Assembly (NCBI RefSeq): GCF_012926615.1
Contig: NZ_JABBNU010000006.1
Coordinates: 1 to 64,000, forward strand
Reading direction: 5' to 3'
Length of the DNA: 64,000 bases
Source: Marinigracilibium pacificum
Lineage (GTDB): Bacteria; Bacteroidota; Bacteroidia; Cytophagales; Cyclobacteriaceae
Shown: piece after piece, positions 3,993 to 20,636 of the stretch
Numbering within the stretch: the first letter of the stretch is position 1
Layout of the letters: each line of letters opens with the position of its first letter
The notes under the pieces: model-generated
Told to the model about the DNA's origin: nothing
The model's input: only the letters and a program-made list of their open reading frames with translations
Database searches by the model: none
Made by a program: the position numbers and the translations under genes

Positions 3993-4271
3993 GTTGTTTG
4001 TGTTTATTGAAAATCGCCGTAAAGGTATAAAAAATGAACAATTCTATTTCAGGAATTTTACTTTTAACGCTTGTTTAAACAGTAATTGGTAACAATTATT
4101 TAATGTCTAATGATTGCATTTAAAAATTATTTGTCAGACTTTCGTGAAATAATCTTCTTGTTTTCGAACTATCAAATACTCGAATCCGTTAGTATTTAAA
4201 TCTAAATAAGATACTCATATCGGCATATATTCGGATTGATCCCATTCAACTCAGTTGTTTTTCTGGATATT

Positions 4272-4307
4272 GGTACCTTTTAAGGAAGGTACCGCCGATT
4301 CTTTTTT
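4272..4307 (+). terminator. Terminator-like hairpin with no upstream gene
   Basis: GGTACCTT (4272-4279) pairs with AAGGTACC (4286-4293) around a 6-nt loop. GCCGAT at 4294-4299 could also pair with ATCGGC at 4219-4224. The run TTCTTTTTT follows. The structure is oriented for plus-strand transcripts. Confidence 0.5.
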
Positions 4308-4431
4308 ACTAATTCCAGAATTAATTTAATTTTTTTTTAAAAAGTGAAAACATTTATAACCCTTTGAGGTTTAAAAAGATAATTAAACTGTGGTGTGGTA
4401 TAGGTTTAATTTTCATGATGGCTGAGAAGCT

Positions 4432-4464
4432 AACCGCCTGAGTGGTAACAGGCGGTTTTTTTTT
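4432..4464 (+). terminator. Strong rho-independent terminator with no upstream gene
   Basis: AACCGCCTG (4432-4440) pairs perfectly with CAGGCGGTT (4449-4457) around an 8-nt loop, and nine T follow (4456-4464). It has all the features of an intrinsic terminator on the plus strand, but the nearest gene to the left is on the minus strand. Confidence 0.75.
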
Positions 4465-4606
4465 GTATTATCGGTACGTATTCTTAAAATAGTGATATAT
4501 TTTAAGTAAATTGTATAAGAATTAGAGAGCGCCTTTCATACCTGTTTTTCAGGGTTACATTTTATTACCAAAATATTAATCATTATGATTCTTAATGCCC
4601 CATATC

Positions 4607-7600
4607 ATGAAACTTTCAATTTTACCCAATCTAAAATCCCATATAATTATCTTATATGATGTGTTGTTCTTGTCTTGTGTTCTTTCATTAGTTAATGTCG
4701 TAAATATTTATGCCCAGCAGGGAGAAAATAAAATTGAACTTCAAGCGACAGGCAATGAAGTAATGTGGAATGAAGGAAACGATGCTGAATCGGTTTATTC
4801 CTTGAAATTTAAAAATATCACCTCAGAAACTACTACCTACCAGATTAAAGTTGTAAATGATGTTGATCAACCCGATTCAATAGATGGTCAATATGGAAAA
4901 TTGATTTACCAGACTGATTATGTGTTTTTAGACACTGGAGCTTCAGAATTCGAATGGTATGAAATCGTTAGTAATGAAAATTTGATTTGGGAACTAGATA
5001 TCCCGGGAGGTAAGTTTGATCCTCCACCGACTCCAATAAAAGAGTTAATAAATAATCCCGGAGAAGAAGATTTTTATTTTCCTTTTTTTGGAGAAGTTAT
5101 TTCATTAAGAGATTTTGCTTTGGCTGAGCAAGGAGGTATAGGTTATTTTCCTGAAAAGGATGGAGACTTCTTTTCTTATGAATATCCTGTAGATAGTTAT
5201 TATCCTGATGGATTTATTTACCCATTGCTTTCTGTTGTGCCTCAAATATTAGAAGTATATTATAAAGAATATCCCGATTTTGCTGTTATACAATTCTTTT
5301 ATAAACTTTGGTCTCGACCTGATGATGATTTTATTTATCAAATTAAGGTAAATAAAAATGGGGATATCAAGTTTTTATATAAGCTTATGGAATTTAGCCC
5401 TACTTGTAATAATGTTGCAACTTTTATGGGACTGGAGTCATTAGATGGTATTCGTACTCATAATAATGAAACACCGGGACCTTATTGCTTTTATGATGAA
5501 AAAATTGTTCTAGAAGATATATCTGTTTCCTATAATTATTTACCTCAGAGAATTTTATATCCAAATATTAAATCAGTAACACTTAATCCGGGAGAAGAAA
5601 CTACCATCGATTTTTATCCTAGAAAAAATCTGGGCCCCGGAAACTATACAACTAATATTAAAATTTCAGATGATAACTCTGAAATATACCAGATTCCAAT
5701 CTTTGCAACGGTATATTCAAATGAAGTTGAAATATCTACCTTGTCTAAGATGATTTGGAGATCAGGTTCTATTACATCTGATATGCTTGATATTAAAATC
5801 AAGAACTTAATAAATGAGGAAAGAAATTTCATTATTCGTTCTGATTTTTCATTTAGTAATCAAGGTGCCACAGATAAATTTATTGTTTCAGATAGAATGT
5901 ATTTACCATTTGATACAGATGATTTTTATATTGGGAATGAGGTTGGGAACAACAAATTTTTGACTAAAAATTATATCTTTCCTAATATAGTTATACCAGA
6001 AAATAAACTTGATTACCCCGGTTTTTACACTGCTCTTGGAGGTAGTTATGCCCGATTCGGTGACATCTTAAAATATAATAATAGACAGGATAGTACCTTT
6101 AAATTTACTTTCTTTGATGAAGAGGTTCACCTCAAAGATTTTATGCTTAGTGAATATGGCTATTTTGCTAACTATAATCCTCCTCCAGGACAATATTATC
6201 CTCCTTATGATTTTGATCCGGGTGATATGTCTGAGCCAAATGGAATAATCGCTCCATTTGTGGGTGAAATTACCTTTAATCCATCTGATAATTTATCGGG
6301 TATTTTTTATGATGAATTGATAATTGAAGGTCAAAAAGTTGCAGCGATTTATTTCAATAGGTTTAAACCAGATGGAAGTGAAACTATATTGACCTGCAGG
6401 TTATTGATTTTACGAAACGGTGATTTTATAATTGAAAAGGCTGGTAATTTTGATGATTTCCCTTCCATTAGAAAAACAGCAGGGATTGAAAGTAAGGATG
6501 GAACTGAATATGCTTATAGAAATATGGATCCGACAGTCCAGTTTGATAACAACAGGATTTTTATTTTCAGAGATAGATTCCCGTTATTTGCTCCACTAGT
6601 ATCAACTACCGCTGCTAATGCTACAGAAATGGTTCAAATGAATCCGAATTTTAAAGCAATACCTGGTTTGCATAATGTAGCTATTTACCTTGACGAAATT
6701 GTTGGCAATGACACAATTCCTAATGTTGCAAAAACCAGATTGCAAGCTGATGTGCTCACTGTAGATTGTGCTCTGACAGATCAAAATTTAAGTTTAAACA
6801 GTGATATAAGTGCCAGTTCAAGTGCAGCCTCCTGGTGGCAACCAGACCGGATGATTGATGGTGCCCAGAATACTCGTTGGTCAACAACTGCAAACCAGGC
6901 GGAGATTATTGTCGACTTGAATCAAGATATTAATTTGGATGAGATTAAAATTTTCTGGGATTATGCAAGAGCTAAAAGTTATTCTGTTTATTCAAAACTA
7001 ATCGATACTGACGCCTGGACATTGATCTACTCAGATATGAATAATTTAGAGGTAAACAACCTGCTATTATTCACTGATGTTTCTTCGAGATACCTGAAAA
7101 TAGTATGTTCCGTTCCGTTTACAACCTATGGATATTCAATTAAGGAGCTGGAAGTTTATGGAGGTTGTTTGACAGAGCCTATCGTACCTGCCAGTGGAGA
7201 AATTTTCCCATTTACTCTCAATTTGAAACCAGGAGATGAAGTTCAATTGATAGCTAATGTAGTTGACAGCAAGGGAAATGTCATTGATCAGCCTGATGGA
7301 GAGTGGTTTACAAATAGTGGAAATGTAAATGTTGATGTAAATGGTTTATTAACTGCTTTGAGTCCTGGAGCATTTACTGTAGAATATCACATTGGAGCTT
7401 TAATATTAACCCGGGACGGTTTTGTCTCTCCCGATGATTGTGCGATATCTCCGTCTGATAACCTTGCATTAAATATGCCTTCATTTGGTTCAAGCCAGGA
7501 AGGTCAGTTCTTCGAGGCTAAAAAAGCCAACGATGGAAACCTCTCTTCCAGATGGTCTAGCAGATATGCAGATAACCAGTGGTATTATGTTGAGCTTGGT

Positions 7601-8131
7601 GACGAATATGAAATTTTTGGAGTAAACATTGTCTGGAATTATAGTGCAGCCAGTTCTTATGAACTTCAATACAGAAATAGCGAAGGTGTGTGGAAAGTAT
7701 TTTATCAGGATTTTGATGCTGATGGCGGAACTGATGTTTTAAAATTTGAAACCGGTATCATCACTGACGCCATCCGTTTGTGGGGATTTGAAAGAAATAC
7801 ATCTTATGGAATTTCAATACATGAATTTCAGGTATTTGGAAGTTGCCCTTCTACAGGAGCTTCAAGTGAATTGCTGTTAACCGGGGTGTCTGCTTACCCA
7901 AATCCGTTAGGACAAACACTTCAGCTAAAATTAAATACAGAAAAAACAGAAAAATATCAATTAAAATTGTACGATAGTAATTTTAATTTGTATTTTAACG
8001 GCGAATTTGAGTTAGGAATGAATCCCATAGAACTTCCCATCAATATATCGACACTTCCGGTTGGTGTTTATATTCTAAAAATGGTAAGCAAAGAGGGAGT
8101 GTCAACCAGTATTAAGCTGGTGAAGGAATGA
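4607..8131 (+). CDS. Giant secreted T9SS protein with two discoidin domains, no protease domain
   Basis: The product is 1174 aa from the ATG at 4607, which puts MKLSIL before the signal-peptide hydrophobic stretch; an ATG at 4595 would add four residues. After the signal peptide (ending near IYAQQ), residues about 130-300 and 480-690 are two divergent copies of one module. Each has a FFGEVISLRDF or FFDEEVHLKDF opening, a predicted beta-rich body, a NGDI/NGDF motif, and GLESLDG or GIESKDG near its end. The C-terminal cassette is a discoidin-like (F5/8 type C) domain (about 720-855), an Ig-like Big_2-type domain (865-945), a second discoidin-like domain (945-1080) and a T9SS type A sorting domain (1090-1174, starting YPNP). 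It is the first of three tandem genes with this cassette. Function is unknown; surface binding or adhesion is an inference. Confidence 0.85.
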   Translation: MKLSILPNLKSHIIILYDVLFLSCVLSLVNVVNIYAQQGENKIELQATGNEVMWNEGNDAESVYSLKFKNITSETTTYQIKVVNDVDQPDSIDGQYGKLIYQTDYVFLDTGASEFEWYEIVSNENLIWELDIPGGKFDPPPTPIKELINNPGEEDFYFPFFGEVISLRDFALAEQGGIGYFPEKDGDFFSYEYPVDSYYPDGFIYPLLSVVPQILEVYYKEYPDFAVIQFFYKLWSRPDDDFIYQIKVNKNGDIKFLYKLMEFSPTCNNVATFMGLESLDGIRTHNNETPGPYCFYDEKIVLEDISVSYNYLPQRILYPNIKSVTLNPGEETTIDFYPRKNLGPGNYTTNIKISDDNSEIYQIPIFATVYSNEVEISTLSKMIWRSGSITSDMLDIKIKNLINEERNFIIRSDFSFSNQGATDKFIVSDRMYLPFDTDDFYIGNEVGNNKFLTKNYIFPNIVIPENKLDYPGFYTALGGSYARFGDILKYNNRQDSTFKFTFFDEEVHLKDFMLSEYGYFANYNPPPGQYYPPYDFDPGDMSEPNGIIAPFVGEITFNPSDNLSGIFYDELIIEGQKVAAIYFNRFKPDGSETILTCRLLILRNGDFIIEKAGNFDDFPSIRKTAGIESKDGTEYAYRNMDPTVQFDNNRIFIFRDRFPLFAPLVSTTAANATEMVQMNPNFKAIPGLHNVAIYLDEIVGNDTIPNVAKTRLQADVLTVDCALTDQNLSLNSDISASSSAASWWQPDRMIDGAQNTRWSTTANQAEIIVDLNQDINLDEIKIFWDYARAKSYSVYSKLIDTDAWTLIYSDMNNLEVNNLLLFTDVSSRYLKIVCSVPFTTYGYSIKELEVYGGCLTEPIVPASGEIFPFTLNLKPGDEVQLIANVVDSKGNVIDQPDGEWFTNSGNVNVDVNGLLTALSPGAFTVEYHIGALILTRDGFVSPDDCAISPSDNLALNMPSFGSSQEGQFFEAKKANDGNLSSRWSSRYADNQWYYVELGDEYEIFGVNIVWNYSAASSYELQYRNSEGVWKVFYQDFDADGGTDVLKFETGIITDAIRLWGFERNTSYGISIHEFQVFGSCPSTGASSELLLTGVSAYPNPLGQTLQLKLNTEKTEKYQLKLYDSNFNLYFNGEFELGMNPIELPINISTLPVGVYILKMVSKEGVSTSIKLVKE

Positions 8132-8172
8132 GAAGAAATTTGTTAAGTTAAGTATTAGTATTTTTATCAATC

Positions 8173-11100
8173 ATGAAAAATTCTACCACTATAGCAGATA
8201 GAGTGAATTTGCTCTATCTGCTTGTATTTTTTATTTTTTTTAATCAATTGGGTATAGCCCAGAATCACTGCGAAAAAGGAGTTGTCAACATTAAAGTGTC
8301 TGAAGAAATGGCTGTGGAATTATCACAATCACTTCAGAACCATAGAGCAGTGGTTACACGATTTGGCGTTCCGGAAATTGATGCTGTTTCAGAAGGGTTT
8401 AAGTGCTCTTCGATCAAAAGGTTATTCCCTTATAACCCAAGATTTGAAGAAAAACATCGAAAGTATGATCTTCATCGCTGGTTTACAATAAGAATTGATA
8501 AAAGTATCCCTATTGAACAAGCAATTCATGATTATGGCGAATTAGAATATGTTGAGATTGCCGAGCCGGTTATGTTACCGGTAAGCTATGATGTAGAAGA
8601 GTCTTCTTTCGATGCATCTAAAACAGGATCTCTGCCAACAGGTAATAATGATCCGTTTTTTGGATTTCAATATTCTTTTGAAAATGTGAACAATCCAATA
8701 GGTGGAGATGTATCAGCATTGCTAGCCTGGAAACAAAGTACCGGAAATCCTGATGTAATTGTTGCGGTTATCGATGGTGGAATAGAACAAACACACCCTG
8801 ATCTTGCGCCTAATTTATGGATAAACGAAGATGAGATACCTAATAATGGTATTGATGATGATAATAATGGATACATTGATGATTATAACGGGTTTGGGTT
8901 TGGAGAAAGAACAGGAGAATACACACCAAATAATCATGGAACTCATGTAGGAGGAACTGTTGCTGCAGCTACCAATAATGGAATTGGGGTAGCCGGTATT
9001 GCCGGAGGTTCTGGTACACTTCCTGGAGTGAAATTAATGTCATGCGCCGCATTTAGTCCGAACGGTACAGGCGGTTTTCAGGAAAGTTTTGTCTATGCAG
9101 CAGATAATGGAGCCGTAATTACCCAAAATTCCTGGCGATTTTTAACACCAAATATATACATCAAATCTTATGAAGATGCGATAAATTATTTTATCAATGA
9201 GGCAGGTAATGATGAATTTGGAAATCAGGTTGGTCCGATGGCTGGTGGTCTGGTAGTCTTTGCTGCCGGGAATGAAAATAGCGGAGAGCAGTTTTTTCCT
9301 TCGTATCTACCACAGGTAATTGCGGTAGCCGCAACTAATAATGCTGATGTAAGAGCTGGGTTTTCGAATTATGGAGACTGGATAGATATATCTGCTCCGG
9401 GAGTTAGTATTTTAAGTACGGTAACTGGTAATAATTATAGTTATTTTTCAGGAACATCAATGGCATGTCCACATGTGTCAGGAGCTGCAGCTCTAATTGT
9501 TTCATCATTTGGTAAACAAGGCTTCACCCCCGAAAAAGTCAAAGCATTATTGTATGGATCAGCAGATAATATTGATCAAGTAAATCCTGAATTTGAAAAT
9601 CAACTTGGCTGGGGAAGACTAAATCTGGCATCATCATTAAAAGCAAAAGTTTATAATGATCCTGCTATAAATCTTTCAAGTGATATTTTAGATATTGGTA
9701 ATATACCACTTGGCTATAATGAGGAGCTTATAATTAATGTTAGAAATATAGGTTTACAGCCACTAAGAATTTTATCAGTTGAAACAATAAGTGATGCGTT
9801 AAAATCAACTACTTTTCCAAGAAGCCCAATTGCTGTTTTTGATAAAGATTTTGTTAGAATTAGCTTTACTCCCAATAAGGTCGGGCCATTCAATGAACTA
9901 GTTGTAATAAAATCTAATGACCCTCTAATTCCATCAAAGCAAGTTACAATTACAGGAAATATATTGTCTTCAGCTGTACTTGAATTAAAAGAAAGTTACC
10001 CTGCGGTAGAGATTGATAATAAAACCATAGATGAATTCACTTTTGAATTTGCGAATGTTGGAAATGTTAAATTAGAATATAAACTTTCATTAGTAGGCCC
10101 ACAAGGCGAAGGGTTTCCGATAAATACTATTGTAAATACTACCGGACAAACACCGGTGAATACATCAGACCAGGTGAGAATGAAAATCGATGCCCGGGGT
10201 GTACCTCGAGGTACCTACTCATACGGTGTCAGGTTTGAAACTAACCAGTTGGGTGGAAATGTTGATACTTTGTTTTTTGATGTCAAAGTATTGGGTCCGG
10301 AGTTAACGATTACTCCTACTGCTTCTTTTATTAAGGTTGCTGATAATCAGCCTGGTATGCTTGAGTTTGAGCTGAAGAATATTGGTGAAACTAATGTCCG
10401 GTATTCAGTCAATATGTTACCGGGTATGAGTTTCAATGAAACAGATACTGCAAGTAAATTTGTTACTGCAACAGGGTTTGAAGTTGATAATTCCAGTGAA
10501 TATTTGGAAGAATGGGCCAGCTCAATCAATGGAAATTGGACTATTAATGAAAATAGCCCAAGTACAGGGAGAAAAGCTCTTTATGGTAAAATTGATTCCG
10601 GATTCGGATTAGGGATTAGAACAAGTTTTACTCCCCCAATAGGTGAATCTTATGTTTTAGAAATGGATTTGAAAATTTCAGAAGGAGCATCATGGATGGT
10701 ATCGTTACCAGCAACAAATATTGGTGAGTTAAGAAGGATCATTTTTAATACATCTGAAAATAAACTGGAATTAAATATATTTTATGGTGATCTCATCGAA
10801 TTGGATTATGAATATCCGATTGGAGAATATTTCAAATTAGCTATTGAAAATAACGAGTTTGGAAATGAGCATCGGATTTATATCAATGGAGATTTAGTAT
10901 ATACTTTAACTAATGATGATTTCCTTGAAGGGCTTGATCTTCCCAAAAACATATTTGGGGTTTTTATAGCTGCACTCAATGAATGTCAGGGAGGGTGTGA
11001 GGTTTATGTAGATAACTATCAAGTTTATAAAGGAGCTTACAGATCTCTTGATAAAAGTTATTTTGAAGGTGAGTTAGCTTCAGGTATGCTATCTACAGGT

Positions 11101-14100
11101 TCATCAAAGTTGGTCTCCATTCCTTTTGAGAGATTAAATTCCGGATATGGATATTATTACAATGATATAAAGATTGATTATTCCTCAATGGAATTAATAC
11201 ATTCTTTGGTAACACAAGTAGAAGGTAATCCTTCCTTTAATGTGAGTTTTGATCAAACAGATTTTGATATTTATTATAACTCAGATAGCACCATCTATTT
11301 TGATATAGAAAATACAGGGGGAAAGGATTTGATTATTTCCACTTCAGTAATTGATAATGAGGAATACCCGTTTACTCCAAAGCAATCTGTTATATATGAA
11401 GAAACTTTTGATTCTCCCTATTTACTTGATGGCTGGGAGCAAGTAGATAATGATGGCTATGAAGGTTATAATTCAAAATGGGTATTGAACCCCGGAACCT
11501 ACCATTCCAATGACGATCCTTCTTCATGTCTGGTTGATAATTATATTGGATTATATGACACTCAGTTTGGAGGCAAAGCAGACCTCATTTCCCCGGGTAT
11601 TAAAATCCAAAATGAAAACACTTATTTAACATTTAGTGCTTCCTTTTTCAATTTAATTGGAAAGGCTTCATTTGAAGTAAATATATCTGTTGATGACAAA
11701 GCTTCCTGGACACAGGTACTCTATTGGGATAATTGGGATGTACCTCATTACTGTGAAGAAGTCAAAATTTTATTAGATGATCATGTAGATCCAGGCGATA
11801 TTGTTTATGTGAAATTTTCAGCGGATATAGGATATGCCAGTTCTGTTGCAATGGATAATTTTAAAATTGTTGAAGAAAATAGTGTAATTATTCTAAACAG
11901 TTCATCTAAATATTTACCTGTTGGAGCCAAGACTAAAATCCCTTTAAAATTTAATTCACGTGATATTGATGATGGTTTGTATAGTAGCTCTGTTAGTTTT
12001 TTCGATTTTCAATCCGGAGAAACATTTAGTCAGGATTTAAATATCAGGGTTCTGACTCCGGGTGAACTTTCGGTTAATATAAATGAATTTAATCTTGAAA
12101 TAGAACAGGAGGAAGTTGTTACTAAAGAGGTTGAATTTACAAATACTGGAGAAAGTCCATTAATATTGAATTTTGATTATAAGCTACCTAATCAGGATAA
12201 TCTTGTAGATATTCAAAATCTCTTCTCGGTAAATTTTGATGAATATCCGGTCGGAGACTTGAAACAAAGCACCAGAATAAATGCCTCTTCTTCAGCTCAG
12301 GTAGGTGATGTTTCTCCATACTCAGGAGAAAAGCATCTAATATTAAATTCATCTTCTGAAGAAGATTACTTCAATACTAAATTATCGAAAATAAATCTTG
12401 ACAAACAGGATAGTGTAACCTCGATATCATTCTTTTATAATTTTGATAATGCACAATCTGTTTCCCTGACTTTATTTCCATACAACATACCAAATACAAT
12501 AATGTATCCACTTGTTGAGATGGAGAAAGCCTCTGTAAGTTTCAGACAGCTACCATCATCTACGACAGTTGGGTCCCTGGATTATCCTGGGTACAAGCAT
12601 TTTGTATATAGCTATAACAGGCTTACCAGGGAGAATAAAATTTATATCGATGGAAGGTTAATCATTAATAAATTAAACTATTCAAATCCAGTTGAAGCTT
12701 TTGCGATTAATGAAAAACGGCCACAATCTAATTCCGGATATCTTTTGTTTGATTCAATCAGGGTTGACAATGGTAAAGCTGCCATGCCAACGGTAAGGGT
12801 TGAAAAACGAAGTATATATTTAAATCCTGGAGAGTCCAAAACTCTGCCGGTAATTATCGATGCATCCCGACTTAAAACCGGTACACTTTTAGAATCATTA
12901 TCCGGAAATTATAATTCATACAATCAGGAGAGTTTTATTCTTCCTGTAAATCTGAATGTTTCTGAACCGGAGTGTTATCTGAATTCAAAAACAAATCAGG
13001 TGATGTTGGGGACACTAAAAGCTAGTTCATTTAATACAGAGTGGACTCAACCTGATAAGGCAAATGATGGAAAGTTTGTTTCAAAATGGGAATCTGACAC
13101 TAATCCGGATCAATATCTGGAAGTAGACCTTGGAAAGGTAAACATGATTAAAAGAGTTCGGATATTATGGGGTACAAATTATGCTTCTTCATTTGATGTA
13201 TATGCCAGATCCGGCTTAACTGATGATTGGACGAAAGTGTTGAATATCCAGGGACATACTAGTCGGGAGTTTGAAGAATCTTTGTCAAATGAGATTGAAG
13301 CCCGATATGTTCGAATCAAAATGAATACACCGGCAACTATCCACGGTTATGCCGTACATGAATTTGAACTATTTGGTGGTTGTGCTACCGGAGTTCCGGT
13401 TATATCTGAATTAAAAATAATTCCTGAATATTATTCGCTCAAAGCTGGTGAAACCATGCAATATCAAGTTGAAGCTAAGGATCAATTTGGGAAAACATAC
13501 ACTCCGACAAATATCATTTGGAGTGCAATTGGTAGTGCTGAAATAGATGAGTCAACAGGTTTATTAACCGGAATTTCTGATGGTGAATATGAAGTTATGG
13601 TAACAGTTGATGGCGTGTCTGCAACTGCCTATGGCACCGTCATCAATAATGATTGTAAAGTTTCTTTGGTTGGCAGCCTGTCATTAAATAAGTATTCAGC
13701 AGCATCTAGTGATCAAGGCGGATCTTTTGTTGCTCAAAGAGCAAATGATGGAGATATTTCAACAAGCTGGAGATCAAAATATGCCGATAACCAATGGTGG
13801 TATGTTGAATTAGGAGATGTCTATAATATCCACGAGGTCAATGTTGACTGGGGTGTGAATTATGCCACTTCCTATGAATTACAATACCGTGATTCCGAAG
13901 GAGTATGGCAGGTATTTTATAAAGATTTGAATGCCAATGGAGGGCTTGACGAGCTTAACCTGGATGGTAGTGTTAGTACAGATGCTATCAGGCTTTGGGC
14001 TTTTACCCGTTCAGGCTCATGGGGATTTAATATCGATGAAATTGAAGTATATGGAGTTTGTTCTCCTGAAAATATTAGTGGTGTTTCTTCTGTTACATTT

Positions 14101-14349
14101 AACCTGACAGCATATCCAAATCCGTTGGATGGAGTACTGCAAATTAAAGTAGGGGAATCTTATAATGGTGAATACAATGTGTGGTTGTATGATAGCCAGT
14201 TTAATACGGTTTACAATGGAGAAGTTGAATTAAGTGCCAACCCGGCTGAATTACCAATGAATGTAAATACCCTGGCACCAGGAGTCTATTTACTTAAACT
14301 TGTTGATTCAGAAGGGTACTCTACAACTGTCAAGTTGTTTAAGGAATAG
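8173..14349 (+). CDS. Giant secreted subtilisin-like protease (S8) with discoidin domains and T9SS signal
   Basis: This 2058-aa product has a signal peptide (hydrophobic residues 13-28, ending GIAQ) and an N-terminal propeptide-like region (about 32-135). The peptidase S8 domain follows with the full triad: Asp201 (AVIDGG), His255 (HGTHVGG) and Ser429 (GTSMACPH), plus oxyanion Asn367 (AAGNEN). After it come beta-sandwich repeats with ASPM/SPD-2/HYDIN-like sequence (such as SNDPLIPSKQ), concanavalin-like segments, a discoidin domain (about 1600-1737), an Ig-like domain (1749-1826), a second discoidin domain (1826-1963) and a T9SS type A signal (1976-2058). It lies 41 bp after the previous gene and 36 bp before its paralogue, so an operon is likely. 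It is probably an exported protease anchored or released by T9SS; the substrate is unknown. Confidence 0.93.
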   Translation: MKNSTTIADRVNLLYLLVFFIFFNQLGIAQNHCEKGVVNIKVSEEMAVELSQSLQNHRAVVTRFGVPEIDAVSEGFKCSSIKRLFPYNPRFEEKHRKYDLHRWFTIRIDKSIPIEQAIHDYGELEYVEIAEPVMLPVSYDVEESSFDASKTGSLPTGNNDPFFGFQYSFENVNNPIGGDVSALLAWKQSTGNPDVIVAVIDGGIEQTHPDLAPNLWINEDEIPNNGIDDDNNGYIDDYNGFGFGERTGEYTPNNHGTHVGGTVAAATNNGIGVAGIAGGSGTLPGVKLMSCAAFSPNGTGGFQESFVYAADNGAVITQNSWRFLTPNIYIKSYEDAINYFINEAGNDEFGNQVGPMAGGLVVFAAGNENSGEQFFPSYLPQVIAVAATNNADVRAGFSNYGDWIDISAPGVSILSTVTGNNYSYFSGTSMACPHVSGAAALIVSSFGKQGFTPEKVKALLYGSADNIDQVNPEFENQLGWGRLNLASSLKAKVYNDPAINLSSDILDIGNIPLGYNEELIINVRNIGLQPLRILSVETISDALKSTTFPRSPIAVFDKDFVRISFTPNKVGPFNELVVIKSNDPLIPSKQVTITGNILSSAVLELKESYPAVEIDNKTIDEFTFEFANVGNVKLEYKLSLVGPQGEGFPINTIVNTTGQTPVNTSDQVRMKIDARGVPRGTYSYGVRFETNQLGGNVDTLFFDVKVLGPELTITPTASFIKVADNQPGMLEFELKNIGETNVRYSVNMLPGMSFNETDTASKFVTATGFEVDNSSEYLEEWASSINGNWTINENSPSTGRKALYGKIDSGFGLGIRTSFTPPIGESYVLEMDLKISEGASWMVSLPATNIGELRRIIFNTSENKLELNIFYGDLIELDYEYPIGEYFKLAIENNEFGNEHRIYINGDLVYTLTNDDFLEGLDLPKNIFGVFIAALNECQGGCEVYVDNYQVYKGAYRSLDKSYFEGELASGMLSTGSSKLVSIPFERLNSGYGYYYNDIKIDYSSMELIHSLVTQVEGNPSFNVSFDQTDFDIYYNSDSTIYFDIENTGGKDLIISTSVIDNEEYPFTPKQSVIYEETFDSPYLLDGWEQVDNDGYEGYNSKWVLNPGTYHSNDDPSSCLVDNYIGLYDTQFGGKADLISPGIKIQNENTYLTFSASFFNLIGKASFEVNISVDDKASWTQVLYWDNWDVPHYCEEVKILLDDHVDPGDIVYVKFSADIGYASSVAMDNFKIVEENSVIILNSSSKYLPVGAKTKIPLKFNSRDIDDGLYSSSVSFFDFQSGETFSQDLNIRVLTPGELSVNINEFNLEIEQEEVVTKEVEFTNTGESPLILNFDYKLPNQDNLVDIQNLFSVNFDEYPVGDLKQSTRINASSSAQVGDVSPYSGEKHLILNSSSEEDYFNTKLSKINLDKQDSVTSISFFYNFDNAQSVSLTLFPYNIPNTIMYPLVEMEKASVSFRQLPSSTTVGSLDYPGYKHFVYSYNRLTRENKIYIDGRLIINKLNYSNPVEAFAINEKRPQSNSGYLLFDSIRVDNGKAAMPTVRVEKRSIYLNPGESKTLPVIIDASRLKTGTLLESLSGNYNSYNQESFILPVNLNVSEPECYLNSKTNQVMLGTLKASSFNTEWTQPDKANDGKFVSKWESDTNPDQYLEVDLGKVNMIKRVRILWGTNYASSFDVYARSGLTDDWTKVLNIQGHTSREFEESLSNEIEARYVRIKMNTPATIHGYAVHEFELFGGCATGVPVISELKIIPEYYSLKAGETMQYQVEAKDQFGKTYTPTNIIWSAIGSAEIDESTGLLTGISDGEYEVMVTVDGVSATAYGTVINNDCKVSLVGSLSLNKYSAASSDQGGSFVAQRANDGDISTSWRSKYADNQWWYVELGDVYNIHEVNVDWGVNYATSYELQYRDSEGVWQVFYKDLNANGGLDELNLDGSVSTDAIRLWAFTRSGSWGFNIDEIEVYGVCSPENISGVSSVTFNLTAYPNPLDGVLQIKVGESYNGEYNVWLYDSQFNTVYNGEVELSANPAELPMNVNTLAPGVYLLKLVDSEGYSTTVKLFKE

Positions 14350-14385
14350 TACCTCGATAAATTAACTACTGAGTCCCTTAATGTC

Positions 14386-17300
14386 GTGAAAAAATTTACT
14401 CATGTCCTCAACCCGGCATCAATAATTTTGATGCTGGTTGTTATTCTATTGCCTGATTTTGCCTTTGGTCAGGATCATTGTAAAAAAGGTATTGTCAATA
14501 TTAAAGTTTCCGAAGAGATGGCTGACCAACTGGAAAGTACTCTTAACGCTGCGGATAGTTCTTTTGCAGTTTATTCAGGAAACGAAGAACTGGATGCTAT
14601 GTCCAGCCAGTTTAAATGCCGGCGTATTTCCAGGATGTTTCCATATAACGAGCGTTTTGAAGCTAAACACAGAAAATATGGATTGCACAGATGGTATACA
14701 GTTTTAATTGATTCCGGAGTTGCAATCGCTGATGCTGTGAAAGAGTATGGTGAACTGGAATTTGTGGAATTTGCCGAGCCCGAATTTGAAACTCAGCTTG
14801 TTGATGGTTCATTCGAACCCATTGTTGTTGAGAGTGAATTTATTGCGCCCTTGATATCCTCTCCTAATGATCCATTGTATAATAACCAATGGCATTATGT
14901 CAATACTGGTCAAGGTGGGGGTGTACCAGGAGCAGATATAAATTTATTGAAAGCCTGGAGAACAACTACCGGTAACAATGATGTGATTGTATCAGTCCAT
15001 GATCAGGGAATTGAATCGACCCATGAAGATTTATCTGCAAATTTATGGGTAAACGAGGATGAGATTCCCGGGAATGGGATCGATGATGATGGAAATGGTT
15101 ACATCGATGATGTTAATGGTTATGGTTTTAGAGAAAACATTGGGAATTATACTCCGGGAAACCATGGAACTCACGTAGCAGGTACCATTGCTGCTGTAAC
15201 CAATAATGGCAAAGGAGGAGCCGGAATTGCTGGAGGTTCTGGTAATGGAGATGGCGTAAAGGTTATGTCTTGTGCTGTGTTTTTAAATAATTCAGGATTT
15301 AGGTTTCAGCAAAGTTTTGTATATGCTGCTGATAATGGCGCAGTAATTTCTCAAAATTCATGGAGTTATAATAATCCGGGAATATTTGTAAGGTCAATTG
15401 CTGATGCTATAGATTACTTTATAGCCGAAGCCGGTAAAGATGAATTTGGAAATCAGTATGGAAAATTAAACGGAGGTATAGTTATCTTTGCTGCGGCAAA
15501 TGATAATGATTACAGACGGTATTTTCCAGCATCCTATGAGCCAGTAGTTGCAGTTGCTGCAACAAGTGGGAAAGATAAAAAATCATACTATTCGAACTAT
15601 GGTGACTGGGTAGATATTGCTGCTCCAGGGGGTGATTTTTGGGAAGATAATATGATATTGAGTACTATCACGTCTAATAGATATGCTTATTATCAAGGAA
15701 CCTCCATGGCATGCCCACATGTTTCCGGTGCTGTTGCCTTACTTGTATCTGCCTATGGTAAAATTGGCTATTCCCCGGAGAGAATCAAATCTCAATTGTT
15801 TAATTCAGCAGACGATATTTCCGATAAGAATCCTGGTTATCCATTTCAATTAGGTTGGGGAAGGCTTGATGTTGGAAACGCAATGAAACAACAAGTTATC
15901 AAGAATCCTTATGTCTGGTTGTTTGATTCATTATTAGACGTAGGCTCTGTGATTAATCTGCCATCAACAGAATTTCAATTTCATCTGGCTAATAGGGGGA
16001 TTAATGAATTAAAAATAGAATCAATAACTTCAAGTAATGGGATTATTCAAGATCAATACTTTAATAATAATCTTATTAGTGTTAAAGCGTTTGAAAGAAA
16101 AAGTTTAACCTTCAAAGGGAGTACAGAATTTATAGGGGCCTGGGTAGATACCTTGATTATTAAAACTAATGACCCGATTAACTCTGAAATGAAATTACCA
16201 GTTAAGGGTGAATTTCTGACTCCTCCAAAGATGATAATAGTAAATCCTCCTTCTCATTTAGTTGTTAAAAATTCCGAGGATACACAGAGTTATTTTTATT
16301 TGAAAAACGAGGGTGGAAATAATCTGGAGGCTTCAATTGAATCAATTAATCCTCCTTCTGGATCAACTCGCCCTAACTTGAATTTAAGTATAAGTAATCC
16401 TCTTGAAGTTATAGTTGCTCCTGGTGATTCACTAAAAGTTGAATTCACAATTAATTCAACCTTTAAAGACAGAGGTGAATATAATTCTGAGATAAAAATC
16501 ATCTCAAATGATCCGGAAAATGAAAATTTGGTTTTGCCTGTAAGTATTTCATTAATAGGACCTTCTGTTGTTTTTGATGCCGATAATTTTGAAGATAAAG
16601 TGACGACAGATGGAATAAAAATTTATTCTACAACGGTTACCAATGTAGGTGAGATCGGTACAGAAATTGAATTTGGAAAACAGCCAAGTGAATTCTATAA
16701 TGGATTTGTAAAAGGAATCGATTATATCTACGGAACAGGTTTTGAAAAAAGAAGCAATCTGGTTGGAAATCGTGATAAATTTATAACTAACTCTTATTGG
16801 AAGGTTTCATCAATCAATCCATATACGGGAATTAATAATCTGCGAGGAGAATTTAATACCGGTGAATCAGGGGGTATAACACCTCGATTATATACTGTTC
16901 CTATTGGAAGGAGGGATTTAGTTATGGAATTTAAATTTTCCATAGCTAGTGGAAATAAGTGGATGTTTGTATTAGCCGACAGGATTAGTCCGAATGAAAA
17001 CCTTACTATTGATTTGGAAGCCAAGAAGATGATTCTTGATAGTTATAACCTCGATGCTATCGAGGTTGATATTGATTTGCAAATGAATCAGTACTACCAT
17101 TTAAGAATTGAAGCTACAAATGGTCATCATAATTTAAAAGTATTTATCGATGATGTTTTATACCTTGAAAGTGAAGAAGAAGACAGGTTTAAATTTTCAG
17201 AAGTAGGGTTTAGTTTGCCAGAACCATGCAGCGGTAATTGTATAATTGATATAGATGATTATAAAATTTATCGAGGTGAATATAAAAGCTTCGATTATGA

Positions 17301-20300
17301 TCAGATTGAGATCGTAAGTGAAAAAAGCTTTCTAAATCCTGGTGAATCATCTAATGTGGAGATTAAAGTAATTGGTTCAGGCCATGATTATGGTGAATAT
17401 TTTAATGATGTATCGGTTGATTATAAAGTTGATGCTGGTTTGTTTGCCTTAAGAACATTGATTTATGATCTGCCATCTGTAGATATTCAGGTGAATAATA
17501 ATGCATCGGTCTATTATCAACAAGACACCACCTTAATGTTGAATGTCAAAAATACCGGTGGGACAAATCTTCTATTATTTACTGAATTTGCTGACATATT
17601 TAATTCTGAATTTCAGAAGAAACAGAATTATTTGATCAATGAAAATTTCGAATCACAAAATCCCCCATTAGGATGGGAAGTAAATGCAATTAGAGGTTCT
17701 TTACTCTGGGGTCCTGTCGGGAATGTATATAATAGACCTGAGCCCACAGAAGAATGTTTGATAGATGATAATGATATAGGAATGGATGGTTATGATGGCT
17801 TTGGTAATTCTGAATTGATTTCTCCTTTAATAAGCTATAACGGTGGCGATTTATATCTGGAATATGATGGAAGCATGACTAACTTATTAGGCCGAACCTC
17901 TCTGATTCTGAGCATAAAACAAGAAGATCAAACCGAGTGGACCGACATATTAGTTTGGGATGATTACTTTCAGGATTATAGTTGTCGACACGTGAAATTT
18001 AATTTGAAAGATTATTTACCAGCCGGTAAAAGGTTCCAATTTAGGTGGGTTGGCGATCAAATTGATTATGCGTCAGGAGTTAGTTTAGATAATATTAAGG
18101 TATATAGCGAAGGAAGTTCATTAATAAATAATTCCTTAGGTGTTATTTCAATTCCTATAGAAGGAGAAGTGGATCTGCCTTTAAGTATTGATGCAATAGG
18201 TTTACTTTCAGGTGAGTATCCTGTTGAGATGCACTTGTTTGATTTGATTTATGATCTTGATACTACTTTAAACTTTGATTTAACTGTATTAGAGCCTGCC
18301 AAACCGATACTTAAAAACACCAGGTTCCAGACTATTGTAGAGCAAGGAAGAACGGTGTCAATTCCACTAACAATTGAAAATTCTGGAGAGAGCCCCTTAG
18401 AAATTGAGATGCCATATGAATTACCTGTTGTAGATAATAATTTTGATGTCGGAGAAGTAATATTTAAAATGGATCCTGATCAATGGCCTCTGGGTGGGTT
18501 GAAAAAAGCCGCGGGAATTGGATTGAATGAAGGAGTTACGATTTCTTCTTTAATGCCATACTCTGGTACTAATCATATTATAATGAATGGTAATTCTAAT
18601 TCAAATATTGCAAGCTCTGCTTATGTACCAATATATTTTTCAATTGATTCCCTGACAAGCATTTCCATGTTTGTGAATTTTGATTCAGCACAAAGTTCTT
18701 CTATCAATATTCAATCTACCAAATTAAGAACTCAAAGTGGAAAACCATATTTCAGGGTTGAAGATGGAGAGTTGTTTTATGTGTCTAATTCCGGAGTGGA
18801 GGCAACAGGCGTCAGAGTAGGTAAAGGGTATCAACAATTAGTATTCAGTTATAATCCTTCAACGAAAGAGAATAAACTTTTTCTGAATGGTAATGAAGTG
18901 TTTAATAGAGTTGAATACAATGAACCAATTAAATCATTAGCAATATCGGCTAGTAGTCAGGAACAAAATTATTTAAATATCGATGACATCATGATCAGGA
19001 ATGGTCATGCATTAATGCCTGTTATAAGGCCGGATATCTTAAAGCTCAAGGTAATGCCTGGAGAAACAGCAAATGTCAATGTGCTGATCGATGGTTCATT
19101 GCTTAATAAAGGCGATTATCAAAAAATTATACCGTTGTTAGAGTCTGGTGTTCTTAATGGAACGGATACTGAAAACTTGAATTATGAATTTTCGATTGTT
19201 GAAGCGGCCTGTAATTTGTCTTCAATAACTAATCAGTCCTTCTTGGGCATATCTTCAGCAACCTCTTCAAATTCTGAATGGCAGCTGCCTGATAGAGCTA
19301 ATGATGGTTTGGTTTTCACAAAATGGCAATCTACTTTCGACCCTGATCAGTATTATGAAGTTGATCTTGGCAAGGTAAACATGATCGATAGCATTAGAAT
19401 TCTATGGGATTTTAATTATGCTTCATCCTTCGAGATTTTAGTGAGATCTTCCGAAACTGATGAATGGACTACTTGGTATTCAACTTTTACGAATACTTCA
19501 AAATTAACTGAGTTATTACTTCCACAGACTACAGCGAGATATGTCAGATTGAAACTAAATACTCCTGCGACAATGTATGGGTATTCATTCTTTGAGTTTG
19601 AACTGTTTGGTGGTTGTGCCGAAGGTGATCCTGTACTTACTTCAATCCATATTAATCCTGAATACTATTCTCTCAGCTCAGGAGAAAGTGTGCAATATGA
19701 TTTTAAAGCAAAAGATCAGTTTGGAAATGAATACATTCCTTCGGTGGTATCCTGGAATGCTACTGGAAATGTAGATATTGATTCTGAAACTGGCTTGTTA
19801 ACTGGTATTGCCGATGGCAATTATCAGGTAGAGATCATTGCAGATGGTGTTTCAGGTTATGCTAACGGGTCTGTGGTAAGTTCTGACTGTGAAGTATCTC
19901 TGGTGGGAAGTCTTTCTTTAAATAAATCATCGACAGCATCCAGTTTTGAAAGTAATGCGTTTAATGCAGGCTTTGCTAATGACGGAAACACTGCTACAGA
20001 TTGGAGATCGAAATTTGCTGATAACCAGTGGTGGTATGTTGAGCTTGGCTCTACTTACAATATCCATGAAGTAAATATTGACTGGGGAGTGAATTTTGCT
20101 ACCTCATATGAACTTCAATACCGTGATGCTGATGGAGTCTGGAGAGTGTTTTACAAAGATTTAAGTGCCAATGGAGGTATTGATAAGATCGGTTTTGATG
20201 GCTCTGTGAGTACAGATGCCATAAGGTTGTGGTCATTTTCCCGTTCCGGACCGTGGGGATTCAATGTAAATGAAGTAGAGGTATATGGGGTGTGTACTCC

Positions 20301-20586
20301 AGATAGCCAGTTAGAAACTGCTTCAGCTGAAATGGCTGTGCTTCTGTATCCAAATCCACCAGAAGATGTTGTAAACCTTCGCCTGAATAATAATAAGGAG
20401 GGTAAATGGACAGCAGAGCTTTATGATGCACAATTTAATTCTCATGGAGAAGTAGAAATAAACCTTAAGGCTGGTTCTAATGTTGAGCTACCATTTAGAA
20501 TGGGAGGGCTTTACAGAGGAACATACTTCTTGAAATTAACCGATTACGACGGTGAAGTGACTGTTTTGAGAATATTAAAAGAATAA
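14386..20586 (+). CDS. Giant secreted subtilisin-like protease (S8), paralogue of the preceding gene
   Basis: The product is 2066 aa, starting at GTG 14386; the ATG at 14381 runs into a stop after two codons. The layout matches the upstream protease: signal peptide ending FAFGQ, propeptide-like region (about 32-135), S8 domain, beta-sandwich repeats, then discoidin (about 1607-1745), Ig-like (1752-1831), discoidin (1834-1970) and T9SS type A (1982-2066). The triad is Asp206 (HDQG), His260 (HGTHVAG) and Ser440 (GTSMACPH). The oxyanion Asn372 sits in AAANDN rather than the usual AAGN. The propeptides of the two proteases are strongly alike (both have MFPYN/LFPYN and FE.KHRKY), and the cassette is nearly repeated at DNA level around 13783 and 20017. 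It arose by tandem duplication with later divergence. A hairpin follows at 20607-20633. Confidence 0.93.
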   Translation: MKKFTHVLNPASIILMLVVILLPDFAFGQDHCKKGIVNIKVSEEMADQLESTLNAADSSFAVYSGNEELDAMSSQFKCRRISRMFPYNERFEAKHRKYGLHRWYTVLIDSGVAIADAVKEYGELEFVEFAEPEFETQLVDGSFEPIVVESEFIAPLISSPNDPLYNNQWHYVNTGQGGGVPGADINLLKAWRTTTGNNDVIVSVHDQGIESTHEDLSANLWVNEDEIPGNGIDDDGNGYIDDVNGYGFRENIGNYTPGNHGTHVAGTIAAVTNNGKGGAGIAGGSGNGDGVKVMSCAVFLNNSGFRFQQSFVYAADNGAVISQNSWSYNNPGIFVRSIADAIDYFIAEAGKDEFGNQYGKLNGGIVIFAAANDNDYRRYFPASYEPVVAVAATSGKDKKSYYSNYGDWVDIAAPGGDFWEDNMILSTITSNRYAYYQGTSMACPHVSGAVALLVSAYGKIGYSPERIKSQLFNSADDISDKNPGYPFQLGWGRLDVGNAMKQQVIKNPYVWLFDSLLDVGSVINLPSTEFQFHLANRGINELKIESITSSNGIIQDQYFNNNLISVKAFERKSLTFKGSTEFIGAWVDTLIIKTNDPINSEMKLPVKGEFLTPPKMIIVNPPSHLVVKNSEDTQSYFYLKNEGGNNLEASIESINPPSGSTRPNLNLSISNPLEVIVAPGDSLKVEFTINSTFKDRGEYNSEIKIISNDPENENLVLPVSISLIGPSVVFDADNFEDKVTTDGIKIYSTTVTNVGEIGTEIEFGKQPSEFYNGFVKGIDYIYGTGFEKRSNLVGNRDKFITNSYWKVSSINPYTGINNLRGEFNTGESGGITPRLYTVPIGRRDLVMEFKFSIASGNKWMFVLADRISPNENLTIDLEAKKMILDSYNLDAIEVDIDLQMNQYYHLRIEATNGHHNLKVFIDDVLYLESEEEDRFKFSEVGFSLPEPCSGNCIIDIDDYKIYRGEYKSFDYDQIEIVSEKSFLNPGESSNVEIKVIGSGHDYGEYFNDVSVDYKVDAGLFALRTLIYDLPSVDIQVNNNASVYYQQDTTLMLNVKNTGGTNLLLFTEFADIFNSEFQKKQNYLINENFESQNPPLGWEVNAIRGSLLWGPVGNVYNRPEPTEECLIDDNDIGMDGYDGFGNSELISPLISYNGGDLYLEYDGSMTNLLGRTSLILSIKQEDQTEWTDILVWDDYFQDYSCRHVKFNLKDYLPAGKRFQFRWVGDQIDYASGVSLDNIKVYSEGSSLINNSLGVISIPIEGEVDLPLSIDAIGLLSGEYPVEMHLFDLIYDLDTTLNFDLTVLEPAKPILKNTRFQTIVEQGRTVSIPLTIENSGESPLEIEMPYELPVVDNNFDVGEVIFKMDPDQWPLGGLKKAAGIGLNEGVTISSLMPYSGTNHIIMNGNSNSNIASSAYVPIYFSIDSLTSISMFVNFDSAQSSSINIQSTKLRTQSGKPYFRVEDGELFYVSNSGVEATGVRVGKGYQQLVFSYNPSTKENKLFLNGNEVFNRVEYNEPIKSLAISASSQEQNYLNIDDIMIRNGHALMPVIRPDILKLKVMPGETANVNVLIDGSLLNKGDYQKIIPLLESGVLNGTDTENLNYEFSIVEAACNLSSITNQSFLGISSATSSNSEWQLPDRANDGLVFTKWQSTFDPDQYYEVDLGKVNMIDSIRILWDFNYASSFEILVRSSETDEWTTWYSTFTNTSKLTELLLPQTTARYVRLKLNTPATMYGYSFFEFELFGGCAEGDPVLTSIHINPEYYSLSSGESVQYDFKAKDQFGNEYIPSVVSWNATGNVDIDSETGLLTGIADGNYQVEIIADGVSGYANGSVVSSDCEVSLVGSLSLNKSSTASSFESNAFNAGFANDGNTATDWRSKFADNQWWYVELGSTYNIHEVNIDWGVNFATSYELQYRDADGVWRVFYKDLSANGGIDKIGFDGSVSTDAIRLWSFSRSGPWGFNVNEVEVYGVCTPDSQLETASAEMAVLLYPNPPEDVVNLRLNNNKEGKWTAELYDAQFNSHGEVEINLKAGSNVELPFRMGGLYRGTYFLKLTDYDGEVTVLRILKE

Positions 20587-20606
20587 TTGATTGGCCCGGT
20601 TGTTTG

Positions 20607-20633
20607 GCGGTCGTTCCCAAAAGGAGCGGCCGC
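20607..20633. terminator. Hairpin between convergent genes
   Basis: An 11-bp stem (20607-20617 with 20623-20633, two G-T pairs) closes a CAAAA loop. It lies between the stop of the giant protease and the stop of the minus-strand ABM protein, so it can end transcripts from either side. The T-run is short. Confidence 0.55.
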
Positions 20634-20636
20634 TCT

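What the first reader, a model, noticed from the sequence alone, without database searches (positions are those of the whole stretch)
4607..20586. Three tandem giant secreted proteins share one C-terminal cassette, two being subtilases
Three consecutive genes (1174, 2058, 2066 aa) each end in discoidin, Ig-like, discoidin and T9SS sorting domains. The first has no protease domain; the other two have complete S8 triads and closely similar propeptides. The genes lie 41 and 36 bp apart. This looks like a duplicated effector set in which the shared cassette targets all three to one surface or glycan while the N-terminal parts do different jobs. The first protein could be a ligand, inhibitor or substrate of the proteases.
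Basis: partly seen in the sequence, partly recalled or inferred. Interest (0 to 1): 0.7.

Follow-up and report, generated by a model that had tools for sequence, protein, structure and literature searches.

The report
Tandem surface proteases with shared anchor
A marine bacterium carries three giant secreted proteins side by side, two protein-cutting enzymes and one enzyme-less relative, that share a probable sugar-binding tail and whose middle parts change unusually fast between related species.

Summary
Three adjacent genes (P1, A, B; gaps 41 and 36 bp) encode secreted proteins ending in F5/8C (CBM32-like), Ig-like, F5/8C and a T9SS-type tail; A and B are S8 subtilases with propeptides and complete triads, P1 has no protease. 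In this genome the cassette was found only in these three genes. The genome is an unnamed Mangrovivirga. In the two other Mangrovivirga genomes held, the locus lies at the same place: one has P1 plus a single A/B chimera, the other A and B with a probable P1 stump. So the ancestral set was probably P1-A-B, and P1 is not obligatory. P1's N-terminal half is two NIDO-like modules related to modules of other T9SS proteases. Best reading: a subtilase counterpart of the gingipain/HagA arrangement, surface proteases plus a protease-less adhesin held on one ligand by a shared cassette. Unexpected: the proteases are recombinant mosaics with conserved catalytic and anchor ends and a centre diverging far faster than neighbouring genes or another giant subtilase of the genus. 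Also new: stem-loops inside the A and B start regions, and two conserved RNA-like elements upstream.

The parts
4595..8131 (+). P1, protease-less secreted protein (1178 aa from 4595; 1174 aa from 4607)
5045..5760 (+). P1 NIDO-like unit 1 with following stretch
   Evidence: hhalign against units in T9SS proteases, E 1.9e-12
6080..6670 (+). P1 NIDO-like unit 2
   Evidence: hhalign against unit 1 E 4.6e-7 and against units in T9SS proteases E 6.7e-7
6764..8128 (+). P1 cassette: F5/8C, Ig-like, F5/8C, T9SS-type sorting tail
8173..14349 (+). A, S8 subtilase (2058 aa)
8193..8222 (+). stem-loop inside the signal-peptide region of A (13 pairs, G-T included)
8278..8685 (+). A propeptide (Peptidase_S8_N)
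8752..9615 (+). A catalytic S8 domain, triad D201/H255/S429
10297..12966 (+). A fast-diverging central region
12967..14346 (+). A cassette: F5/8C, Ig-like, F5/8C, T9SS sorting tail
14386..20586 (+). B, S8 subtilase (2066 aa, GTG start)
14413..14437 (+). stem-loop inside the signal-peptide region of B (10 pairs, G-T included)
14488..14910 (+). B propeptide (Peptidase_S8_N)
14977..15861 (+). B catalytic S8 domain, triad D206/H260/S440
19204..20583 (+). B cassette: F5/8C, Ig-like, F5/8C, sorting tail (tail score just under both cut-offs)
20606..20634 (+). terminator-like hairpin (12 pairs, 8 GC) after B
4213..4305 (+). conserved RNA-like element 1 upstream of the locus
4377..4464 (+). conserved RNA-like element 2, ends in a terminator-like hairpin

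Best explanation
P1-A-B is one genus-specific, probably co-transcribed locus for T9SS-exported surface proteins. A and B are subtilases, presumably activated by removal of their propeptides; P1 is a protease-less adhesin built from NIDO-like and discoidin modules. The common F5/8C-Ig-F5/8C cassette holds all three on the same ligand, probably a polysaccharide of the cell's own matrix or of particulate food, so the proteases work next to the adhesin. The locus evolves by duplication, loss and recombination between tandem copies, which keeps the catalytic and anchor ends and lets the central region diverge. Shown: architecture, genomic uniqueness, shared locus, gene-content differences, mosaicism, divergence contrast. 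Inferred: co-transcription, activation, surface location, glycan binding, function of P1.
For: Domains; triads; cassette found only in the three genes of this genome and, as a full-length match, only in the 3 Mangrovivirga genomes of 390 family genomes (33; at most 4 candidates scored per genome); SprA of the T9SS present. Same place between the same flanking genes in G001 and G002. G001's single protease switches from A-like (331 of 414 diagnostic sites) to B-like (38 of 229 still A-like) near its residue 1338, chi2 242 against a maximum of 17.9 in 2000 permutations; segment trees pair it with G002's A at 100 in mid2 and with G002's B at 100 in mid3 (ultrafast bootstrap, 58). P1 stump before A in G002: p 0.002-0.024 in four tests with P1 tails or gene ends, against 0.22-0.52 for four A/B-type tails. 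Centre: 41% of 41 windows of G001's protease are under 60% identical to the better of G002's A and B, while orthologs of the giant subtilase L112 have 0 of 48 windows under 60% in each of three comparisons. NIDO-like relatives lie in two S8 proteases and one M43 protease. The second discoidin domain has its best sequence matches among solved structures in Paenibacillus chitosan-binding modules.
Against: No expression, secretion or binding data. Tails of B (both libraries) and P1 (Pfam) score just under cut-off. Only three species, so the fast-diverging centre could be relaxed constraint; synonymous sites are near saturation, so selection could not be tested. A second giant subtilase, L113, is itself only 62% identical to its G002 ortholog, so divergence varies among such genes. 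The second Ig segment does not recover the A pairing of G001's protease (supports 25 and 71). Replacement by incoming DNA could also make the chimera. The stump is weak by tblastn (E 0.10). The AF2 model of P1's N-terminal half failed (mean pLDDT 26.7), so NIDO-like rests on profile comparison with units picked because they hit P1; Pfam NIDO itself does not hit P1. Terminator-like hairpins inside the starts of A and B could cut co-transcription.
Confidence: 0.55

Rival explanations
1. Dentilisin-like complex: P1 is an accessory subunit needed to express, stabilise or anchor the subtilases, as PrcB/PrcA are for PrtP in Treponema denticola, where the three share one operon.
For: Non-protease gene directly upstream of subtilases with short gaps; NCBIfam denti_PrtP is the top model for A and B (131.9 and 116.3 bits, cut-off 300); operon order prcB-prcA-prtP and the need for PrcB described in PMC8167434 (passages).
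Against: G002 (M. halotolerans) keeps two open protease genes without P1, with at most a stump; no PrcA/PrcB-like match in P1; the subtilases score far below the PrtP cut-off.
Confidence: 0.12
2. P1 is a substrate, inhibitor or decoy of the proteases.
For: Co-localisation and shared cassette would put them together. One of four relatives of P1's first unit has a sub-threshold match to the proteinase-inhibitor family BsuPI (13.5 bits, cut-off 22.9, E 0.07).
Against: No inhibitor family among P1's own Pfam matches at E up to 1; P1 lost where both proteases remain, and kept with a single protease in G001.
Confidence: 0.08
3. Ordinary tandem duplicates for protein scavenging; the central region merely drifts under weak constraint, and chimera and loss are routine unequal recombination without functional meaning.
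For: Twelve S8 matches in the genome; near-saturated synonymous sites leave selection untested; the giant subtilase L113 is 62% identical to its G002 ortholog; tandem genes with discoidin and T9SS-like tails also occur in other genera.
Against: The giant T9SS subtilase L112 keeps at least 61% identity in every window, so size and secretion alone do not explain the divergence; the cassette stays conserved (second F5/8C 72-91% among the five subtilases).
Confidence: 0.25

Closest known systems
Gingipain/HagA set of Porphyromonas gingivalis (RgpA, Kgp, HagA; also adjacent PG0410/PG0411)
   Same: T9SS-exported proteases with propeptide and C-terminal adhesin modules, plus a protease-less and propeptide-less protein (HagA) made of the same kind of modules; recombination and modular rearrangement of the adhesin region (PMC5266723, passages).
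   Different: Here the catalytic domain is S8, not the gingipain type; modules are NIDO-like and F5/8C rather than cleaved adhesin domains; all three genes are adjacent (that rgpA, kgp and hagA are unlinked is recalled); the most variable part is the centre, not the terminal cassette.
Dentilisin operon prcB-prcA-prtP of Treponema denticola
   Same: Non-protease genes upstream of an S8 subtilase in one operon (PMC8167434, passages).
   Different: No lipoprotein partners recognised, PrtP model cut-off not reached, and P1 is missing in one species; a cassette shared by all three partners is not mentioned in the passages seen.
Giant T9SS subtilases with NIDO-like/HYDIN-Ig accessory regions (own genome C12, L112)
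   Same: S8_N-S8-accessory-T9SS tail; related NIDO-like modules.
   Different: No F5/8C match there at E up to 0.01; slower and more even divergence.
Discoidin/CBM32 modules of Paenibacillus chitosanase/glucanase (4zxe, 4zy9) and LamA
   Same: Second F5/8C domain matches at E 1e-26; fold match rank 28 with TMt 0.77; the LamA discoidin domain binds several polysaccharides (PMC2789033, abstract).
   Different: Those sit on glycoside hydrolases; the ligand here is untested.

Membership tests
S8 subtilase with PF16361 propeptide (A, B) | S8 domain above cut-off with Asp/His/Ser motifs and N-terminal propeptide | tested here: met
S8 subtilase (P1) | S8 domain | tested here: not met
   no S8 match at E up to 1
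T9SS type A cargo | C-terminal sorting domain above curated cut-off | tested here: inconclusive
   A over both cut-offs; P1 over TIGR04183 only; B just under both
T9SS type A cargo | T9SS machinery in the genome | tested here: met
   SprA_N 472.6 bits, one match; other components not searched
F5/8 type C (discoidin/CBM32-like) | PF00754 above cut-off, two stretches per protein | tested here: met
   relatives
Gingipain/HagA set | gingipain-type (cysteine peptidase) catalytic domain | tested here: not met
   only S8 among peptidase families at E up to 1
Gingipain/HagA set | cleaved adhesin domains | tested here: not met
   not among Pfam matches at E up to 1
Gingipain/HagA set | protease-less member sharing modules with the proteases | tested here: met
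Dentilisin (NF033595 PrtP) | score above 300 bits | tested here: not met
   131.9 and 116.3 bits
NIDO (PF06119) modules in P1 | Pfam match | tested here: inconclusive
   no direct hit; profile match to four units of which 3 hit NIDO
Operon | single transcript | not testable with these tools
   gaps 41/36 bp, no terminator-like site in the gaps

The most novel reading that the evidence does not exclude
An independently evolved, subtilase-based counterpart of the gingipain/HagA system in free-living marine bacteria, acting as a surface-diversification locus: recombination between tandem copies keeps catalytic and anchoring ends and renews a fast-diverging centre that sets the target, while stem-loops at the start of each protease gene brake translation of the giant secreted products.
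Probability: 0.25. Interest if true: 0.65.

Novelty: new variant of a known kind. Interest (0 to 1): 0.45.

Why it matters
If true, the proteases-plus-protease-less-adhesin design known from an oral pathogen arose separately, with another protease family, in marine bacteria, and a genus with cultured members (M. cuniculi, M. halotolerans) and three natural gene combinations would let the role of each part be tested. The contrast between constant ends and a changing centre asks what selects variation on T9SS surface proteases outside a host.

Tried and rejected
AF2 of P1's N-terminal half from two sequences gave pLDDT 26.7 and was not used. A PDB search with that half found nothing at E up to 1. 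Recent gene conversion of the second F5/8C domain was considered (A and B of G002 are 86% alike) but synonymous positions are near saturation, so it is not claimed. P1 relatives were sought with the whole protein in 39 genomes (19 with a match, but every listed match outside the genus lies in the cassette or tail, query residue 721 onward) and with the N-terminal half in 380 family genomes (at most 2 candidates scored per genome): outside the genus only G053 and G083 match, weakly, plus one more place in this genome (C12); all three lie in other proteases. The hairpins in the starts of A and B as true terminators: by eye the U-rich tail is not kept in the G002 orthologs, so a translation role is preferred. 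A conserved stem in P1's start is not significant (p 0.22 and 0.13), and G001's chimera lacks one (p 0.52). Rfam at E up to 5: six matches, none at its gathering score; a PyrR match of 29.5 bits (cut-off 54) over element 2 was discarded. A fourth BLASTN hit of element 2 (G089, of 148 genomes) lies antisense inside an ORF and was judged chance. TAnnTTTG motifs (Bacteroidetes -7 consensus, recalled) occur 8 times on the plus strand between 3900 and 21000, all inside ORFs; sigma-70-like sites were not evaluated, since 25 of 85 were not shown. Literature, judged from listings: T9SS with subtilase and discoidin gave one paper, on a methanotroph secretome, not opened; T9SS with at least three of subtilisin-like, tandem, C-terminal domain and Cytophagales gave six, not opened; T9SS with subtilase, carbohydrate-binding module and tandem gave none.
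Full report
The window belongs to a draft genome of 4,956,116 bases in 37 contigs. Two genus-mates are held. G002's contig C3 has the length (606,027) of NZ_JAPFQN010000003.1 of Mangrovivirga halotolerans M17, the record returned for this cassette. G001 is one contig of 4,661,901 bases, the genome size given for M. cuniculi R1DC9 (PMC8489838, listing and passages); that identification rests on length alone. So the window is from a third Mangrovivirga, unnamed here.

Observation. P1 (4595 or 4607-8131), A (8173-14349) and B (14386-20586) are open over their whole length. Each carries two F5/8 type C domains around an Ig-like linker and a T9SS-type tail; A and B carry S8 propeptide and catalytic domains with complete Asp/His/Ser motifs. 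Tail scores straddle the cut-offs, B being just under both. SprA of the T9SS is in the genome.

Is the cassette special? In this genome the 364-residue cassette of A finds only the three genes (3 matches from 14 scored candidates). In 390 family genomes (at most 4 candidates scored in each), 16 match the cassette profile at E 1e-20, but only the three Mangrovivirga genomes over its whole length; the other 13 match parts. In the four of those 13 that I opened (G015, G052, G141, G146), the matches lie on neighbouring large proteins whose BLAST similarity to A and B is confined to residues after about 1390; five of them have W(S/R)DEF(N/D) near the N-terminus, which I recall as typical of GH16 and did not test by a family search.

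The locus in relatives. In G001 and G002 the genes lie between the same neighbours: a GCV_T-domain protein and a 2-phosphosulpholactate phosphatase on one side, an ABM-domain protein, RNase HII and a TonB receptor on the other. G001 has P1 and one subtilase of 2045 aa, 46 bp apart; G002 has two subtilases of 2051 and 2054 aa, 38 bp apart, and no P1. Eight flanking proteins are 71-88% identical between this genome and the others and 83-99% between G001 and G002, so G001 and G002 are sisters. Upstream of A in G002 lies a short degraded stretch resembling P1's C-terminus: tblastn E is only 0.10, but scores against 500 mononucleotide shuffles give p 0.006 and 0.024 with the two P1 tails and 0.002 and 0.004 with P1 gene ends, against 0.22-0.52 for four A/B-type tails. 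The simplest history is P1-A-B in the ancestor, loss of P1 in G002, fusion of A and B in G001.

Mosaic proteases. G001's protease is A-like (vs G002 A: S8 88%, second Ig 93-94%) up to about its residue 1338 and B-like after it (vs G002 B: first F5/8C 83%, second 91%, tail 84%). Of 643 diagnostic sites, 331 of 414 are A-like before and 38 of 229 after the break; chi2 242, largest of 2000 permutations 17.9. Unrooted five-sequence segment trees (ultrafast bootstrap) pair it with G002's A at 100 (propeptide+S8, mid1, mid2) and 90 (first Ig), and with G002's B at 100, 100 and 93 (mid3, first F5/8C-Ig, second F5/8C); in the tail it falls in the B-type group (100). The second Ig segment is unresolved (25, 71), and other inner supports are 54-81. 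In this genome's A the centre is closest to G002's B (49% and 40%; 42% for residues 495-1595), while its tail is closest to G002's A (63%).

Fast centre. Between the sister species the second Ig is 93-94% identical but mid1 and mid2 only 39% and 46%. For G001's protease against the better of G002's A and B, 41% of 41 overlapping windows of 100 columns are under 60% identical; for A and B of this genome against the best of the other species' proteases 66% and 71% of windows are. For orthologs of another giant T9SS subtilase (2488 aa, L112) 0 of 48 windows fall under 60% in any of the three comparisons. Against this stands a second giant subtilase, L113: 62% identical to its G002 ortholog, with nothing better than 29% in G001, so speed varies among such genes. 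P1 is 55% identical between the two species that have it, 51% in its N-terminal part. Synonymous positions are near saturation, so positive selection was not testable.

What P1 is. Its N-terminal half holds two related units (hhalign E 4.6e-7 for this single comparison) that match four units in a T9SS S8 protease of this genome, an S8 protease of G083 and an M43 protease of G053 (E 1.9e-12 and 6.7e-7). Those units were chosen because they hit P1. Three of the four hit Pfam NIDO; one also has a sub-threshold match to the proteinase inhibitor family BsuPI (E 0.07). P1 is thus accessory modules plus the common cassette, without the enzyme. Adhesion is the likeliest job; the hint of an inhibitor is too weak to carry weight.

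What the cassette may bind. The second F5/8C domain has as best sequence matches among solved structures the chitosan-binding modules of a Paenibacillus chitosanase/glucanase (E 1e-26). In the fold search these rank 28 and below but have the only high coverage scores seen (TMt 0.75-0.77); rows above them are larger discoidin-bearing or other proteins aligned with TMq 0.17-0.26. The cassette model has mean pLDDT 64.6. A discoidin domain of Paenibacillus LamA binds several polysaccharides (PMC2789033, abstract). A polysaccharide ligand is therefore likely; which one is unknown.

Comparison. The arrangement works like the gingipain/HagA set: HagA lacks protease and propeptide and is made of modules of the kind found in RgpA and Kgp, whose adhesin regions are modular and recombine (PMC5266723, passages). 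It is not a member: the catalytic family and the modules differ. The dentilisin operon (PMC8167434, passages) is a second model, weakened by the absence of P1 in G002.

Expression signals. No terminator-like site lies in the two gaps; one follows B. Inside the signal-peptide regions of A and B lie stem-loops that, among 278 heuristically called genes of the contig, rank first (11 Watson-Crick pairs) and joint second (9, with three other genes). Given protein and codon usage, p is 0.0017 (A), 0.033 (B), 0.049 and 0.022 (A and B of G002), 0.52 (G001), 0.22 and 0.13 (P1 of this genome and G001); orthologs are not independent. Translation initiation in Flavobacterium johnsoniae is described as tuned by mRNA secondary structure (PMC6847099, start of abstract in the search listing), so a translational brake is a fair guess. 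Upstream, two elements (4213-4305, 4377-4464) have mean column identity 92% and 97% in the three genomes, are predicted to fold into branched or hairpin structures, and are found once per genome in 3 of 59 genomes, all of this genus.

Verdict.

Noticed in passing
window 8193-8222 and 14413-14437: Stem-loops inside the signal-peptide coding region of A and B, kept as structures in both G002 genes although the sequence differs; not significant in G001's chimera.
   Followed up: partly
window 4213-4305 and 4377-4464: Two RNA-like elements, mean column identity 92% and 97% in three Mangrovivirga genomes against a diverged background, single copy, no Rfam match above its cut-off; element 2 ends in a terminator-like hairpin.
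   Followed up: partly
L112:2046-9512: Giant T9SS subtilase of the same genome with NIDO-like accessory modules, 79-80% identical in both other species.
   Followed up: partly
L077, L078, L079, L080: Neighbouring large discoidin proteins with T9SS-like tails in other genera of the family; five have W(S/R)DEF(N/D) near the N-terminus (recalled as GH16-like).
   Followed up: no
L043:8122-8362: Degraded stump resembling the P1 C-terminus upstream of the first protease of G002 (M. halotolerans).
   Followed up: yes
window 14386 and L043:14557: B starts with GTG in both genomes that have it, whereas the A-type genes start with ATG.
   Followed up: no
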